Part shown: positions 21,485-30,929 of the stretch, piece by piece
Numbering within the stretch: the first letter of the stretch is position 1
Layout: each line of letters begins with the position of its first letter
From: a virus
Virus record (IMG/VR): IMGVR_UViG_3300045283_000258
Coordinates: 1-39,059 of that record
Strand: one strand, 5' to 3'
DNA: 39,059 nt
Notes under the pieces: model-generated
Seen by the model: only the letters and a program-made list of their open reading frames with translations
Told to the model about the DNA's origin: nothing
Databases searched by the model: none
Translations under genes and position numbers: made by a program

Positions 21485-21672
21485 CTAGTCTCGTCGCCAG
21501 GGAGACGGCGATCGCGATCGTGCTTGGGCTCGCGCTGATCGGTTGCTCGATCGCGGCCGCGCACTGCTCGGCACAGTGCGCATGTGCAGAACCGAGCCCT
21601 AACAAAGGGTCGGCGTCCACACTGGCGGAGGGGGGATCCGGGGCAGCGGGACGCCGACAAGCGAAACCTTAG
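21481..21672 (+). CDS. Small lipoprotein, possible outer spanin
   Basis: 63 aa with a TTG start (TTGA overlap). Residues 9-21 form a hydrophobic signal ending in the lipobox L-I-G-C (Cys22), so the mature 42-residue product would be lipid-anchored. It is Cys/Ser/Pro-bearing and short, like Rz1-type outer spanins, but it is not nested in an Rz gene, so the lysis role is speculative. Its stop (TAG) overlaps the stop of the opposing SSB gene, closing the late block without space for a terminator. Confidence 0.5.
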   Translation: MTSLVARETAIAIVLGLALIGCSIAAAHCSAQCACAEPSPNKGSASTLAEGGSGAAGRRQAKP

Positions 21673-22079
21673 AATGGATCGGGGCCGAAGTCGCCCGAAT
21701 AATCTTCGCTCGCGTCCGATTGAGGCGCGCCCCCGCTCGACCCTTCCGAGCGCGGTCTAGCCCCGCCTAGGAGCACCACGCGCGAGGTGACGATCTCCAC
21801 TGTCCGCCGCTTGGCTCCGTCGCGATCGGTAAACTCGCGCTGCCGTAGTCGCCCCTCGATGAAGACCGGTTCGCCTTTTTGCAACAGCTTCGAAAGGCTC
21901 TCAGCTTGGTTGCCGAGCGTGACCACCTCATGCCAGGCCGTTTCGGTCTTCCGCTCTTTGGCGTTTGAATCGAAATAGCTTTCGTTCGTCGCCACGCTGA
22001 ACGCGAGCATCTTGCCCCGGAGCACGGGCGCCTTGCCCACGTTCCCGAGTAGCACCACGCGGTTATAACCCTCTCTCAT
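21669..22079 (-). CDS. ssb: Single-stranded DNA-binding protein
   Basis: 136 aa, one OB-fold. MREGYNRVVLLGNVGKAPVLR opens the protein as in bacterial SSBs, AWHEVVTLGNQAESLSKLLQKGEPVFIEGRLRQREFTDRDG is the family core, and the disordered acidic tail ends DFGPDPF, resembling the protein-interaction tip of bacterial SSBs. The ATG at 22079 overlaps the stop of the upstream gene. It is last in the leftward recombination operon, where it would coat DNA resected by the exonuclease and assist the RecT domain. Confidence 0.93.
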   Translation of the reverse strand: MREGYNRVVLLGNVGKAPVLRGKMLAFSVATNESYFDSNAKERKTETAWHEVVTLGNQAESLSKLLQKGEPVFIEGRLRQREFTDRDGAKRRTVEIVTSRVVLLGGARPRSEGSSGGAPQSDASEDYSGDFGPDPF

Positions 22080-23521
22080 GCTGCACCGTCCATTTCCTCT
22101 TGTGAATGCATGCCCTGTAGTGCGCCCGGCACGATGATCCGAGCGCATTGGACACCGGCCTCTTTCCTCAGCATTTGATCGGGGCGCTTGTCCCAAGCGC
22201 TGCCCGATTTGATCATACCCGCATCTTTCGCTTGCTCGATCGTGTAGCGGATCGTGACTTCCTTTTGCCCTTTCGCCTTGCCCCGCCATTCGGCGAAAGT
22301 CTCATCGCCGTCGACGAATTCGAGATAATCGCAATCGCGATGCGCGCGGGCGCGGGAGATCAGAAAGTGGGCCGTGGGGCACGGGCGCCCCTCGACGATA
22401 TTGAAGCAGTCGAGCGCAGTCAGCGCCCCTAGCCCGAGCTCACGCCCGCGAATGATCACAGCCCAGATCGCCGCGGGGTTTTTGAACTTTGCATAAAGGC
22501 CCGAGCCGTGGAGCCCTTGCGCCAGCTTGAACGCGGCCCCGAGTGACGTTGGCTCTAGCCCGAGTTCCCAGCTAGGCGCCGCTACGATTGCTTGCGAGCG
22601 ATCCGGGCTTTGGGCTTCGGCTCGATCGGGCTTGCCAGCTTCGCCCGGTGAGGCTTCGCTTTGAGGCTCGGGCGTTTCTTGTTCGTGTTCTGGACGATCG
22701 CTTTCGCTTGGTTCACGGTTTTCATGCACTGGATCCTCTTTAGGGGTTCTGGTCTCGTAGATCTGTCGGAAGCTGATCGGCGCATCAAAGCGCAGTGTCA
22801 CTAGTTGGATCGTCGTCGGGAGCCATGCGAGGGCAGCTTGCAACGCAGCTGACACCACGGGCGTTGCAACCTTGCCGGGGTTCGTTCGTACGGCATCCAT
22901 CACTTGCTCGATCGTCGCGTAGGCCGTTAGCAGCTTCGCGGCACCCTTCGGCCCGACCCCTTGCACGCCGGGGATATTGTCAGACTGATCGCCCACGATC
23001 GCGAGGTAATCGCGCATTTGCTCGGGCCAAACGCCGAACTTTTTCCGCACGCCATCGCGGTCCAAAAGCTCACCCGTCATCGGCGACGACCATTGGACGC
23101 CGAATTCTACGAGCTGAGTTAGATCTTTGTCCGCGCTGCAAACTAGCACCTCGTGATCGAGCTTAACCGCGGCACGGCAAGCGGTCGCTACGAGGTCGTC
23201 AGCCTCGAAGCCATCACACTCCCAGAGCAAGAGCCCCATGCGTTCTAGGGTGCGTTTCGTGCGCGCTAGTTGCTCGTAGGCGCTGATCGGGCGGAGCTCC
23301 CGGTTTGCCTTATACGCGGGATCGATCGCCTTCCGAAAGTTCCGGGGCGAATCGCAACAGATCGCGATCAGCTGATAGCCTTCGGAGATCTTCCGGATGT
23401 GATCGATCGATCGATCGTGCGCCTCGCAGATATCTTTCCCGGCGGTCGAGTGCCACGCAGGCCAGAAAATAGAGCCCAGATCGATCAGCACCACGGGCCC
23501 GCGGTCATCTGCTTCGCTCAC
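22076..23521 (-). CDS. Fusion of FEN/PolA-type 5'-3' exonuclease and RecT-type annealing protein
   Basis: 481 aa, uninterrupted. The N-terminal exonuclease (1-255) has metal ligands Asp14, Asp57, EADD (106-109), DKD (131-133) and GDQSDN (177-182), followed by the helix-hairpin-helix GVQGVGPKGAAKLL. Residues 256-316 are a charged Pro/Glu linker. The C-terminal part (319-478) matches RecT single-strand annealing proteins: AAIWAVIIRGRELGLGALTALDCFNIVEGRP, a T-x-E-x-A-K-D-A-G segment, and DQMLRKEAGVQCARIIVPGALQG. One chain thus carries end resection and annealing, next to an SSB. Recombination, and perhaps concatemer formation, are inferred. Start ATG overlaps the upstream stop. Confidence 0.9.
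   Translation of the reverse strand: MSEADDRGPVVLIDLGSIFWPAWHSTAGKDICEAHDRSIDHIRKISEGYQLIAICCDSPRNFRKAIDPAYKANRELRPISAYEQLARTKRTLERMGLLLWECDGFEADDLVATACRAAVKLDHEVLVCSADKDLTQLVEFGVQWSSPMTGELLDRDGVRKKFGVWPEQMRDYLAIVGDQSDNIPGVQGVGPKGAAKLLTAYATIEQVMDAVRTNPGKVATPVVSAALQAALAWLPTTIQLVTLRFDAPISFRQIYETRTPKEDPVHENREPSESDRPEHEQETPEPQSEASPGEAGKPDRAEAQSPDRSQAIVAAPSWELGLEPTSLGAAFKLAQGLHGSGLYAKFKNPAAIWAVIIRGRELGLGALTALDCFNIVEGRPCPTAHFLISRARAHRDCDYLEFVDGDETFAEWRGKAKGQKEVTIRYTIEQAKDAGMIKSGSAWDKRPDQMLRKEAGVQCARIIVPGALQGMHSQEEMDGAA
23401..23417. repeat. GATC tandem microsatellite
   Basis: Four head-to-tail GATC units (GATCGATCGATCGATCG) lie in the exonuclease part of the fusion gene, encoding around Asp-Arg-Ser-Ile-Asp-His on the minus strand. 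Such a run is slippage-prone and is an extreme case of the general GATC richness of the genome. Confidence 0.8.
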
Positions 23522-23766
23522 GGTTCGGGCCTTTCGTGGTCCACTTCCGTATCAGCGTCGAGCCAATTGCCCGCGGCTGCGCGCTCGTGCCGCAGGGCTA
23601 GATCCATCGTGCTAGCGGCCTGCTCTAGTAGGCTGCTTGCGAGCACTCGCAGCCGGTGTGCCGCGTCATCGTCTCCGAGTGACGCGATTCGCCCTAGCTC
23701 GCTTTCGCAGAAACCGAGCTGAGCTCTGATGCTGCCGATCAGTCGCAGCCGTTGACCCTCATCCAT
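23518..23766 (-). CDS. Hypothetical helical protein heading the recombination operon
   Basis: 82 aa, almost all helix (RLRLIGSIRAQLGFCESELGRIASLGDDDAAHRLRVLASSLLEQAAS). A GGAGG ribosome site precedes ATG 23766, and the stop overlaps the exo-RecT start. It is the first gene after the leftward promoter. Function unknown; a modulator of recombination is only a guess from place. Confidence 0.65.
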   Translation of the reverse strand: MDEGQRLRLIGSIRAQLGFCESELGRIASLGDDDAAHRLRVLASSLLEQAASTMDLALRHERAAAGNWLDADTEVDHERPEP

Positions 23767-23785: not shown

Positions 23786-23815
23786 TCGATAGCCGATCGA
23801 CTCTAGCGGAGTCAA
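23786..23815 (-). promoter_or_regulatory. Promoter of the exo-RecT/SSB operon
   Basis: On the minus strand, -35 TTGACT (23815-23810), an 18-bp spacer and -10 TATCGA (23791-23786) lead to an expected start about 12 bases before the GGAGG-preceded ATG at 23766. The spacer holds the dyad GACTC-N5-GAGTC, which begins in the -35. The -35 lies within a 19-bp box that recurs at the Cro promoter. Confidence 0.55.
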
Positions 23816-23825
23816 TTGGCTACGG
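23807..23825 (-). promoter_or_regulatory. Shared 19-bp operator box, copy 1
   Basis: CGGAGTCAATTGGCTACGG on the plus strand. Its reverse complement is found unchanged at 24465-24483. In both places the box covers the -35 hexamer of a promoter reading away from the repressor gene, in the same orientation relative to that promoter. It is the best candidate binding site for the phage repressor. Confidence 0.6.
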
Positions 23826-23907: not shown

Positions 23908-24120
23908 ATGATGGGGCTATTTTCCACAGTGGAGACCCGGGACGGCGTTCTACGCATCGAGGTGCGGCAACGCCGTGCGGACGGGACCACGGAGATCGTA
24001 GGGCTCTTAGCGTGCGCGCTTTCGGGTAACGGGCCGCGCGCGCTGGGAGAGCTCGCTCGCCTTGCTCTCGAAGATCAAGATCTCCCGCTCCCCAAGAGCG
24101 CGAGGGGCGGGCGCCGCTAG
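23908..24120 (+). CDS. Small hypothetical protein convergent with the repressor
   Basis: 70 aa (two adjacent ATG codons, 23908 and 23911). The N-terminal beta-type stretch FSTVETRDGVLRIEVRQRRADGTTEIVGLLA is followed by a helix and a basic tail. There is no ribosome site, but a promoter ending eight bases before the ATG suggests a leaderless message. Its last 114 bases overlap the 3' end of the opposing repressor gene, so the two transcripts would be antisense. It could be a small regulator of the switch; not recognised. Confidence 0.5.
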   Translation: MMGLFSTVETRDGVLRIEVRQRRADGTTEIVGLLACALSGNGPRALGELARLALEDQDLPLPKSARGGRR

Positions 24121-24408
24121 TTGTTTCGCTTTTTGGGGCGGGGGTCCGGGCGGAACAAGCCACGATGTTACGGGCCTAGGGCCCTCGTTGCGCCCGAGCC
24201 ATCCCGGGTCGCAATCGAGCGCCCTCGCCGCTTTCACGATCGTCGTGTAGCCGGGGCGCGGGGCCTTGCCCATGATCAGTTTTCGCAGCTGCGCGTGGCT
24301 CAAGTCGTGGTCTCGCTCCAAGTGGTTGATCGAGGGCGGCTGTCCTTTTTCGTTTCTGGGCAAACAGTGCCAAGCGAACCATGCGCGCTGTGCGATCGAC
24401 GAAAACAT
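24007..24408 (-). CDS. XRE-family repressor (CI-like)
   Basis: 133 aa from ATG 24408, which has AAGGGTG nearby and a promoter right upstream; a longer in-frame start at 24474 would swallow that promoter. Residues about 25-75 are a lambda-repressor-type HTH (HLERDHDLSHAQLRKLIMGKAPRPGYTTIVKAARALDCDPGWLGRNEGP). The basic, Pro-rich C-terminus has no LexA-like peptidase domain, so induction would need another route than RecA-stimulated self-cleavage. It is divergent from Cro and is probably the lysogeny repressor. Confidence 0.78.
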   Translation of the reverse strand: MFSSIAQRAWFAWHCLPRNEKGQPPSINHLERDHDLSHAQLRKLIMGKAPRPGYTTIVKAARALDCDPGWLGRNEGPRPVTSWLVPPGPPPQKAKQLAAPAPRALGEREILIFESKASELSQRARPVTRKRAR

Positions 24409-24415
24409 ATCCACA

Positions 24416-24444
24416 CCCTTAGCTGAATAGCTATTCGGCGACAA
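24416..24444 (-). promoter_or_regulatory. Repressor promoter with palindromic operator
   Basis: Minus strand: TTGTCG (24444-24439), a 17-bp spacer, TAAGGG (24421-24416), then seven bases to the repressor ATG, again a leaderless layout. The spacer contains the perfect 12-bp palindrome GAATAGCTATTC (24425-24436), a good site for Cro or for autoregulation. Confidence 0.45.
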
Positions 24445-24464
24445 TAGGCAGGGCTCCCCCGCGC

Positions 24465-24483
24465 CCGTAGCCAATTGACTCCG
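24465..24483 (+). promoter_or_regulatory. Shared 19-bp operator box, copy 2
   Basis: CCGTAGCCAATTGACTCCG, the exact reverse complement of 23807-23825. It covers the -35 of the Cro promoter. Just downstream, CTCC-GGC-GGAG forms a short dyad analogous to the one at copy 1. Confidence 0.6.
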
Positions 24484-27043: not shown

Positions 27044-27267
27044 CGCGGCAGAGGGGGCCGCGCGTGATCGATCTGGCCGCTGAGAGGGCAGCCAGAGGGG
27101 CGATCCAGGCTGGCGCTATGTCGGCCTGGATCGAGGGGTCCGAAGTGGTCGTGCAGTTCCCCGGCGGGCAACGCCAGAGGCTAACGCCACATCACCTCCG
27201 GATCTGGCGTGACAATTTCGAAGCCCTGCTAGGCACGATCGAGGCGGCCGGGAGCCGGCGCAAATGA
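27040..27267 (+). CDS. Small hypothetical protein
   Basis: 75 aa, GTG start overlapping the integrase stop (GTGA). It is basic, with a helical N-terminus (VIDLAAERAARGAIQAG) and a beta strand (SEVVVQFPGGQRQRL). Not recognised. It sits between integrase and methyltransferase, coupled to both. Confidence 0.55.
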   Translation: MTRQRGPRVIDLAAERAARGAIQAGAMSAWIEGSEVVVQFPGGQRQRLTPHHLRIWRDNFEALLGTIEAAGSRRK

Positions 27268-28133
27268 TCGTGCACTCCGATCCGCTATCGGCTGTGCACG
27301 TTGCCGATTGCCTCAGCGTGGAAGCGGCGATCGAGGCCATGGCGGGGCAACGCGCCGATGCGCTGATCTTCGATGCGCCGTTTTCAGCGAAGACCCACGA
27401 GGGGCACAAGAGCGGCAAGCTAACCACGGAGCGGGCCGCGTCGTTTGCACGCGCTCAGCGCGCCCGGGGGCATGACTCGGCAGAGGTCCGCTACGCGAGC
27501 AAGAGCGGCGATGCGGCGATGCGGCGCGATATCGTCTACCCGCATTTCGACGATACGAAGATCGATCTCTTTTGCCGCGTGTGGCTCCCCCTTTGCAAAG
27601 GATGGGTGGTCAGCATCACGGACGATGTGCTGGCCCCGCAATGGGCCGCGTGCTTCGAGCAATCAGGGCTCTATGTGTTTGCGCCGCTCCCGCTAGTGGA
27701 GCTCGGCGGTCGGATCCGTGTGTGCGGCGATGGCCCTAGCTCGTGGACGTGCTGGATCGTGGTCGCTCGCCCGCGTGGTGCGCCATATTCGAAATGGGGC
27801 ACGCTGCCCGGTGCATACGTGCAAAGTGCAGAGCGCGATTTCAACCGTAAGGGTGGGTCTTCTCGGATCGTAGGCGGCAAGCCTTTTAAGGCCATGTGCG
27901 CGATCGTTGGCGACTACTCCCGCAGGGGTGATTTGATCGTCGATCCGTTCTGCGGCGGAGGCACCACGCTAGCCGCTGCGAAACACCTCGGGCGCCGCTC
28001 GATCGGGCTCGACCGGTCGGAGCTGCATGCCCGGATCTCAGCCAAGCGCGTGGGCAACATGCGCGAACAAATGAGCTTGTTCGAAACGTCACCCGATCGG
28101 GTGAGTCTCAAACAGATCGGGCTATTCAAATGA
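27264..28133 (+). CDS. DNA (N6-adenine/N4-cytosine) methyltransferase, beta class
   Basis: 289 aa. Catalytic motif IV is DAPFS (37-41), where the family usually has DPPY/F, and the SAM-binding motif DPFCGGGTT (227-235) comes later, the order of the beta class. The middle (GDGPSSWTCWIVVARPRG...YSKWGTLPGAY, about 156-185) is typical of a phage-borne methylase group. No partner endonuclease is nearby, so it is an orphan methylase that probably protects phage DNA. Target unknown; GATC is a guess because of its excess here. ATGA coupling on both sides. Confidence 0.87.
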   Translation: MIVHSDPLSAVHVADCLSVEAAIEAMAGQRADALIFDAPFSAKTHEGHKSGKLTTERAASFARAQRARGHDSAEVRYASKSGDAAMRRDIVYPHFDDTKIDLFCRVWLPLCKGWVVSITDDVLAPQWAACFEQSGLYVFAPLPLVELGGRIRVCGDGPSSWTCWIVVARPRGAPYSKWGTLPGAYVQSAERDFNRKGGSSRIVGGKPFKAMCAIVGDYSRRGDLIVDPFCGGGTTLAAAKHLGRRSIGLDRSELHARISAKRVGNMREQMSLFETSPDRVSLKQIGLFK

Positions 28134-30460: not shown

Positions 30461-30540
30461 GCGCGGAAGATCTTGCCCTGTGTTTTGGGTTGCTGGCTGT
30501 TACCCTGCTCGCCATCACTCTCTTGGTTGGTCGATCGTGA
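30457..30540 (+). CDS. 27-aa membrane micropeptide
   Basis: ATG at 30457 overlaps the helicase stop (ATGA), and the stop at 30538-30540 overlaps the next GTG (GTGA). The product is M-S-A-E-D followed by an uninterrupted hydrophobic span of about 19 residues (residues 6-24: LALCFGLLAVTLLAITLLV) and G-R-S, a textbook single transmembrane helix. Without it there would be an unexplained 76-base gap in an otherwise gapless operon. Function unknown; small holin-like or membrane-tether roles are possible. Confidence 0.65.
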   Translation: MSAEDLALCFGLLAVTLLAITLLVGRS

Positions 30541-30929
30541 GTGAGACGGATCTCAGCAAGGCGATCCGCCAAGCGCTACGCGCCAAGGGCTGCAAAGTGA
30601 TCCGCATTCAGACCGGGATCATCCCGGCTCTGTACGGCTCCACGAAACGCTTTATCCACTGCGCGGAAAACGGCACGCCCGATTGGTTGGTTATCCGTGA
30701 GCCCGGCGTTTATACGTGGCTCGAAGTGAAGATCGAGGGAAAGAGGCTCAAGCCCGCGCAACAGGCTTGGCACGAATGGGCGGTTAGCGCAGGCCTCCGG
30801 GTCGCGGTCGTGCGGTCGGTCCAAGAAGCGATCGCCGCAGTGTTCGCCCCACGGATCCAGCCGATCCCGGCCCCCGTCGCTTCGTCCCTAGCGCGCTCTG
30901 TTTCTGCCCGGGCACGGCACGCGCGCTAG
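30537..30929 (+). CDS. VRR-NUC domain nuclease
   Basis: 130 aa with a GTG start overlapping the micropeptide stop. It shows the PD-(D/E)xK fold pattern of VRR-NUC proteins: an N-terminal helix (LSKAIRQALRAKGCKVIRIQTG), GTPDWLVI with the active Asp, YTWLEVKIEGKRLKPAQQAWHEW with Glu-x-Lys and the family Gln, and a final helix (VRSVQEAIAAVF). Related proteins cut branched DNA or flaps. It is the last gene of the early replication operon. Confidence 0.88.
   Translation: MSETDLSKAIRQALRAKGCKVIRIQTGIIPALYGSTKRFIHCAENGTPDWLVIREPGVYTWLEVKIEGKRLKPAQQAWHEWAVSAGLRVAVVRSVQEAIAAVFAPRIQPIPAPVASSLARSVSARARHAR

What the first reader, a model, noticed from the sequence alone, without database searches (positions are those of the whole stretch)
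22076..23521. One polypeptide joins a FEN-type 5'-3' exonuclease to a RecT-type annealing protein, with SSB next in the operon
The frame runs without a break through exonuclease motifs (EADD 106-109, DKD 131-133, GDQSDN 177-182, HhH 185-198), a 60-residue charged linker, and a RecT pattern (319-478). Known phage recombination pairs use RecE, YqaJ or lambda-Exo type nucleases encoded as separate genes; a FEN/PolA-type nuclease physically tied to RecT is, as far as I know, not a described arrangement. With SSB coupled behind it this would be a compact resection-annealing-coating module.
Basis: partly seen in the sequence, partly recalled or inferred. Interest (0 to 1): 0.82.

Follow-up and report, generated by a model that had tools for sequence, protein, structure and literature searches.

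The report
Phage nuclease fused to DNA-annealing protein
This temperate phage and at least 30 related uncultured phages make one protein that joins a DNA-trimming enzyme of the DNA-polymerase-I kind to a strand-annealing protein like phage lambda's Red-beta, a natural all-in-one recombination machine that I found described nowhere.

Summary
One uninterrupted 481-codon frame (minus strand, 23521-22076, GTG start) encodes a complete PolA-type FEN 5'-3' nuclease, a disordered acidic linker and a RecT/Red-beta annealing domain. The RecT half passes Pfam's cut-off; modelled alone, its best PDB match is Red-beta, then Listeria RecT. It is no frameshift or assembly artefact: 37 fusions (36 from other IMG/VR contigs; 33 after 90% clustering, down to about 31% identity) keep the architecture. 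All nine FEN carboxylates and the residues matching Red-beta's DNA-contacting W143 and R161 are invariant; both domains are under purifying selection. Where searched, these phages have no PolA, YqaJ or DUF3799 nuclease and no second RecT, so the FEN domain fills the exonuclease slot. Free-standing RecT relatives often sit beside a separate YqaJ or DUF3799 gene. The fused RecT ends at the annealing core, lacking the tail by which Red-beta holds lambda Exo. SSB behind the fusion is real here but occurs in only 4 of 37. No fusion turned up in 50,697 phage records, 72,556 plasmid records or about 960 prokaryote genomes; one UniProt protein (A0A6J5MUB0) resembles it along its whole length but is named only as a nuclease. 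The mechanism, a single-chain exonuclease-annealase, is inferred. New variant of a known kind.

The parts
22076..23521 (-). FEN-RecT fusion gene, 481 aa, GTG start, TGA stop
   Evidence: open frame; Pfam/PHROG/NCBIfam matches at both ends; 36 homologous fusions
22754..23521 (-). residues 1-256: PolA-type FEN 5'-3' nuclease domain with nine carboxylates (D14, D57, E106, D108, D109, D131, D133, D178, D181)
   Evidence: Taq Pol 2e-25; E. coli ExoIX TM 0.86 of target; all invariant
22568..22732 (-). residues 264-318: disordered acidic P/A/S/T-rich linker, variable in length between relatives
   Evidence: pLDDT below 50; linker lengths 48-136 in relatives; composition
22079..22567 (-). residues 319-481: RecT/Red-beta annealing core; no C-terminal partner-binding domain
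   Evidence: ends at the annealing core
21669..22079 (-). SSB, 136 aa, start codon overlapping the fusion's stop (ATGA), acidic C-terminal end GPDPF
   Evidence: PF00436 2.6e-23; sequence
23518..23766 (-). 82-aa ORF directly upstream, stop overlapping the fusion's GTG (GTGA); no family match
   Evidence: sequence; no match; related ORF in L001
23790..23822 (.). operator-like dyad upstream of the operon (TAGCCAATTGACTC-CGCTA-GAGTCGATCGGCTA)
   Evidence: second exact half-site at 24468-24481 beside the repressor gene
24007..24474 (-). Cro/C1-type HTH protein, likely the phage repressor
   Evidence: PF13443 5.5e-5

Best explanation
A temperate phage's homologous recombinase made as one chain. The N-terminal FEN nuclease degrades or trims 5'-ended strands at DNA ends and ss/ds junctions; the tethered RecT/Red-beta core oligomerises on the exposed 3'-ended strand and anneals it to a complementary strand. 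The flexible linker replaces the Red-beta tail-lambda Exo contact of two-protein systems, keeping nuclease and annealase together 1:1. It most likely serves end repair, concatemer formation and exchange between phage genomes. Shown here: domain identities, intact catalytic and DNA-contact residues, joint conservation, and absence of the tested rival nucleases. Inferred: enzyme activities, oligomerisation, order of events and role in infection.
For: Domain profiles (33/33 members match exonuclease phrog_107, 32/33 match RecT phrog_4171); two confident domains joined by a disordered linker; nuclease fold like ExoIX, T5 FEN and Taq; RecT domain like Red-beta (Z 8.4), Listeria RecT (6.0) and RAD52 (5.5); all nine FEN carboxylates and the equivalents of Red-beta W143 and R161 invariant in all sequences covering them (contacts from PMC9512822); purifying selection on both domains in one frame; nuclease halves form one clade, support 100/100; no PolA in 7 records, no YqaJ or DUF3799 and a single RecT in 19 records; free-standing relatives neighbour separate YqaJ or DUF3799 exonucleases; fused RecT lacks the tail that in Red-beta binds lambda Exo.
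Against: No biochemical or genetic data. FEN enzymes mainly cut flaps and junctions, and some are weak on blunt duplex ends, so processive resection is not assured. Truncated Red-beta anneals but fails in recombination (PMC5052646), so whether a tethered core suffices is unknown. Other nucleases of these phages, such as the endonuclease-like gene at 30480-30929, could contribute.
Confidence: 0.6

Rival explanations
1. Anneal-then-trim: the RecT core first anneals a strand at a replication fork or overlapping end, and the FEN domain then cuts the 5' flaps left over so that ligase can seal. Resection is done by something else or is not needed.
For: FEN/PolA-type nucleases are classically flap endonucleases; the fold match to ExoIX and FENs fits flap cutting at least as well as end resection. 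Early Red models used Pol I flap activity to finish joints (PMC7496540).
Against: These records hold no YqaJ or DUF3799 resection nuclease, and the FEN domain occupies the place of the resection exonuclease in relatives.
Confidence: 0.28
2. Replication role: the nuclease removes RNA primers during phage lagging-strand synthesis, and the RecT domain only tethers it to ssDNA.
For: The phage carries DnaB-like helicase and initiator genes but the scan showed no polymerase; PolA N-domains remove primers in cells.
Against: The host's own Pol I should supply this; the RecT residues matching annealing contacts W143 and R161 are invariant.
Confidence: 0.09
3. Assembly error or chance read-through joining two unrelated genes.
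For: The linker in window and L001 has an unusual codon-position composition and a second open frame.
Against: 37 proteins from independent contigs keep one frame; both domains show purifying selection in that frame.
Confidence: 0.01

Closest known systems
Lambda Red (Exo + Red-beta) and Rac RecE/RecT, two-component exonuclease-annealase systems
   Same: A 5'-3' exonuclease paired with a RecT/Red-beta annealase; RecT domain with Red-beta fold
   Different: There two genes, a PD-(D/E)XK nuclease and a C-terminal domain on the annealase; here one chain, a FEN nuclease and no such domain
Phage RecT beside YqaJ or DUF3799 exonucleases
   Same: Nearest free-standing relatives of this RecT domain
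   Different: Nuclease of another fold, separate gene directly upstream
Phage T7 gp6 exonuclease with gp2.5 (my knowledge)
   Same: FEN-family 5'-3' exonuclease working with an annealing protein
   Different: Separate genes; gp2.5 is an OB-fold SSB, not RecT
E. coli ExoIX (Xni), phage T5 FEN, N-domain of DNA polymerase I
   Same: Fold and the full set of active-site carboxylates
   Different: No annealing domain; PolA carries a polymerase instead
UniProt A0A6J5MUB0 (uncultured Caudovirales phage, 462 aa)
   Same: Aligns over the whole fusion at 34% identity: very likely a deposited member
   Different: Named only 'PIN_53EXO domain containing protein'

Membership tests
FEN / PolA-type 5'-3' exonuclease | N-terminal and SAM-fold domain profiles | tested here: met
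   PF02739 88.2 bits (cut-off 34.3), PF01367 78.5 bits (cut-off 40); in 8/8 members scanned
FEN / PolA-type 5'-3' exonuclease | Active-site carboxylates | tested here: met
   D14, D57, E106, D108, D109, D131, D133, D178, D181 invariant in every sequence that covers them
FEN / PolA-type 5'-3' exonuclease | 5'-3' exonuclease or flap activity | not testable with these tools
   needs purified protein
RecT/Red-beta single-strand annealing proteins | Family profile over cut-off | tested here: met
   PF03837 26.2 bits against 24; phrog_4171 in 32/33 members, best 1.9e-20; profile finds Red-beta 7ujl in PDB, E 0.0011, sole hit
RecT/Red-beta single-strand annealing proteins | Annealing-core fold | tested here: met
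   Foldseek best hits 7ujl (2e-5) and 7ub2 (8e-3); Z 8.4 and 6.0
RecT/Red-beta single-strand annealing proteins | Residues contacting the template strand | tested here: inconclusive
   Equivalents of W143 and R161 invariant; K154 is R in most members but E454 here
RecT/Red-beta single-strand annealing proteins | Annealing activity and oligomers | not testable with these tools
   needs biochemistry or cryo-EM
Lambda Red / RecET two-component systems | Separate PD-(D/E)XK exonuclease gene | tested here: not met
   No YqaJ or DUF3799 in 19 records; nuclease is FEN-type and fused
Lambda Red / RecET two-component systems | Annealase C-terminal domain binding the exonuclease | tested here: not met
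   Fused RecT ends at the core with 0-15 further residues; Red-beta 178-261 binds Exo (PMC9512822)
DNA polymerase I | Polymerase domain | tested here: not met
   No PF00476 match in the protein or in 7 related records
SSB (downstream gene) | SSB OB-fold profile | tested here: met
   PF00436 82.5 bits, cut-off 26

The most novel reading that the evidence does not exclude
A third, independently assembled way of coupling nuclease to annealase: a flap endonuclease covalently linked to a Red-beta core, in which one chain resects, anneals and trims the flaps it creates, needing neither a PD-(D/E)XK exonuclease nor an Exo-binding tail.
Probability: 0.4. Interest if true: 0.78.

Novelty: new variant of a known kind. 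Interest (0 to 1): 0.64.

Why it matters
Phage exonuclease-annealase pairs underlie genome mosaicism and recombineering, and how the two activities are physically coupled is still studied. A natural single-chain version with a different nuclease class, kept in more than 30 divergent phages, allows a direct test of whether coupling alone is what the Red-beta tail provides. It also offers candidate one-gene recombineering tools.

Tried and rejected
Frameshift or assembly error: rejected, same frame in 37 proteins. Full PolA: rejected, no polymerase domain. Defence system: no PADLOC match. SSB as a fixed third part of the module: rejected. A member in annotated phages or plasmids: none covers 80% of the query. 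Host: the family was not found in about 960 sampled Myxococcota and Pseudomonadota genomes; the Myxococcota matches were short weak hits, so the host remains unknown. Single origin: supported for the nuclease domain (100/100), not rejected for RecT (p-AU 0.30), but that tree is weakly resolved. Expressed overlapping gene in the linker: open in window and L001 only, not kept in L002/L003, not pursued. Literature: searches found no description; Iyer 2002 is not held and subscription papers were not searched.

Full report
OBSERVATION. The coordinates are right but the gene is on the minus strand: 23521 to 22076, 481 aa, starting GTG. The stated motifs are at the stated residues. Pfam finds both parts of a PolA-type 5'-3' exonuclease (E 6e-25 and 5.5e-22) and RecT (6.7e-6, above Pfam's cut-off) in one chain. 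PHROGs and NCBIfam agree, with PolA N-domain, Xni and lambda Bet among the matches. The next gene, SSB, starts at 22079 with an ATGA overlap; the longer 206-aa ORF in the mechanical list is its over-extended version.

NOT AN ARTEFACT. Searches of IMG/VR gave 36 further contig proteins with both domains in a single frame, 33 clusters at 90% identity including the window, with identity to the window from 88% down to about 31%. L114 is cut at its start by the contig end; a few more contigs end inside the gene. No hit of the nuclease clade that is not cut by a contig end lacks the RecT half. Between window and L001, dN/dS is 0.07 in the nuclease, 0.13 in RecT and 0.51 in the linker.

ANATOMY. AlphaFold2 on the 33-row alignment gives two confident domains and a disordered linker at 264-318. 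The nuclease resembles E. coli ExoIX, a plastid exonuclease, T5 FEN and Taq polymerase's N-domain. The RecT half modelled alone (pLDDT 92) has Red-beta as its only Foldseek match with E below 0.001, followed by Listeria RecT; VIA-align gives Z 8.4, 6.0 and 5.5 for Red-beta, RecT and RAD52. A profile of the RecT halves finds just one PDB sequence, Red-beta. All nine FEN carboxylates are invariant, as are W443 and R461, which align with Red-beta W143 and R161 (alignment), two of the residues that hold the template strand (PMC9512822). One contact residue, K154, is arginine in most members but glutamate in the window.

WHY THE FEN DOMAIN IS PROBABLY THE EXONUCLEASE PARTNER. In 19 records searched whole there is no YqaJ or DUF3799 nuclease and exactly one RecT domain; in 7 there is no DNA polymerase A domain. 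Many of these records may be incomplete. Free-standing relatives of the RecT domain lie directly behind a separate YqaJ gene (L142, L143; weakly L125) or DUF3799 gene (L155, L157); for the others no nuclease was identified. In Red-beta, residues 178-261 bind lambda Exo and possibly SSB while 1-177 suffice for annealing (PMC9512822). The fused RecT stops at the annealing core, as expected if the covalent link replaces that contact; but two free-standing relatives (L155, L157; 199-208 aa) also lack a long tail, so tail loss is not unique to the fusion.

EVOLUTION. The nuclease halves form one clade against PolA and FEN homologues (support 100/100). The RecT tree neither shows nor rejects a single origin (p-AU 0.30). 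One old fusion is the simplest reading. It was not found in INPHARED or PLSDB or in about 960 sampled prokaryote genomes. One BFVD/UniProt entry, A0A6J5MUB0, matches over the whole length but is named only as a nuclease.

CONTEXT. The window is a virus record of a temperate phage with integrase, repressor-like protein, DnaB-like helicase, initiator-like gene and an endonuclease / Holliday-junction-resolvase-like gene. The 82-aa ORF, the fusion and SSB overlap end to start, suggesting one translationally coupled operon. An operator-like dyad precedes them, and an exact half-site lies beside the repressor gene, so the operon may be repressor-controlled (inference). SSB directly follows the fusion in window, L001, L009 and L044 only.

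MECHANISM. Best supported is a single-chain exonuclease-annealase: resection of 5' strands by the FEN domain and annealing by the RecT core. The main rival is annealing first and flap trimming after; the two are not exclusive and only biochemistry separates them. T7 gp6 with gp2.5 (my knowledge) shows that a FEN-family nuclease can partner an annealing protein, so the principle is not without precedent; the covalent FEN-RecT form appears undescribed in the searched literature.

Noticed in passing
genes directly behind the fusion in L008, L010, L033, L047, L113, L117, L120, L124: Small proteins with SSB-like acidic C-terminal ends (for example DDDIPF, DDDIKF, GQIKW) often follow the fusion; those of L008, L010, L047 and L117 had no family match where scanned. 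They may be SSB substitutes or mimics of the SSB tail.
   Followed up: partly
window 22582-22788, minus strand, +1 frame within the linker; same in L001: A basic, lysine-rich frame overlaps the linker; GC at third codon positions drops and synonymous change is low there. Not kept in L002/L003; it may be a recent insertion read in another frame.
   Followed up: partly
window 23790-23822 and 24468-24481: Two exact copies of GAGTCAATTGGCTA, one within an imperfect dyad, flank the repressor gene: likely operators.
   Followed up: partly
window 23518-23766, minus strand: 82-aa ORF of unknown function coupled to the fusion (GTGA overlap); a related ORF precedes the fusion in L001 and a similar-sized one in L003.
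   Followed up: no
window 27264-28133, plus strand: 289-aa protein whose C-terminal part matches DNA methyltransferase families (phrog_67 3e-15) over only about 75 residues, possibly a shared accessory domain; its homologues recur near the fusion in 10 loci.
   Followed up: no
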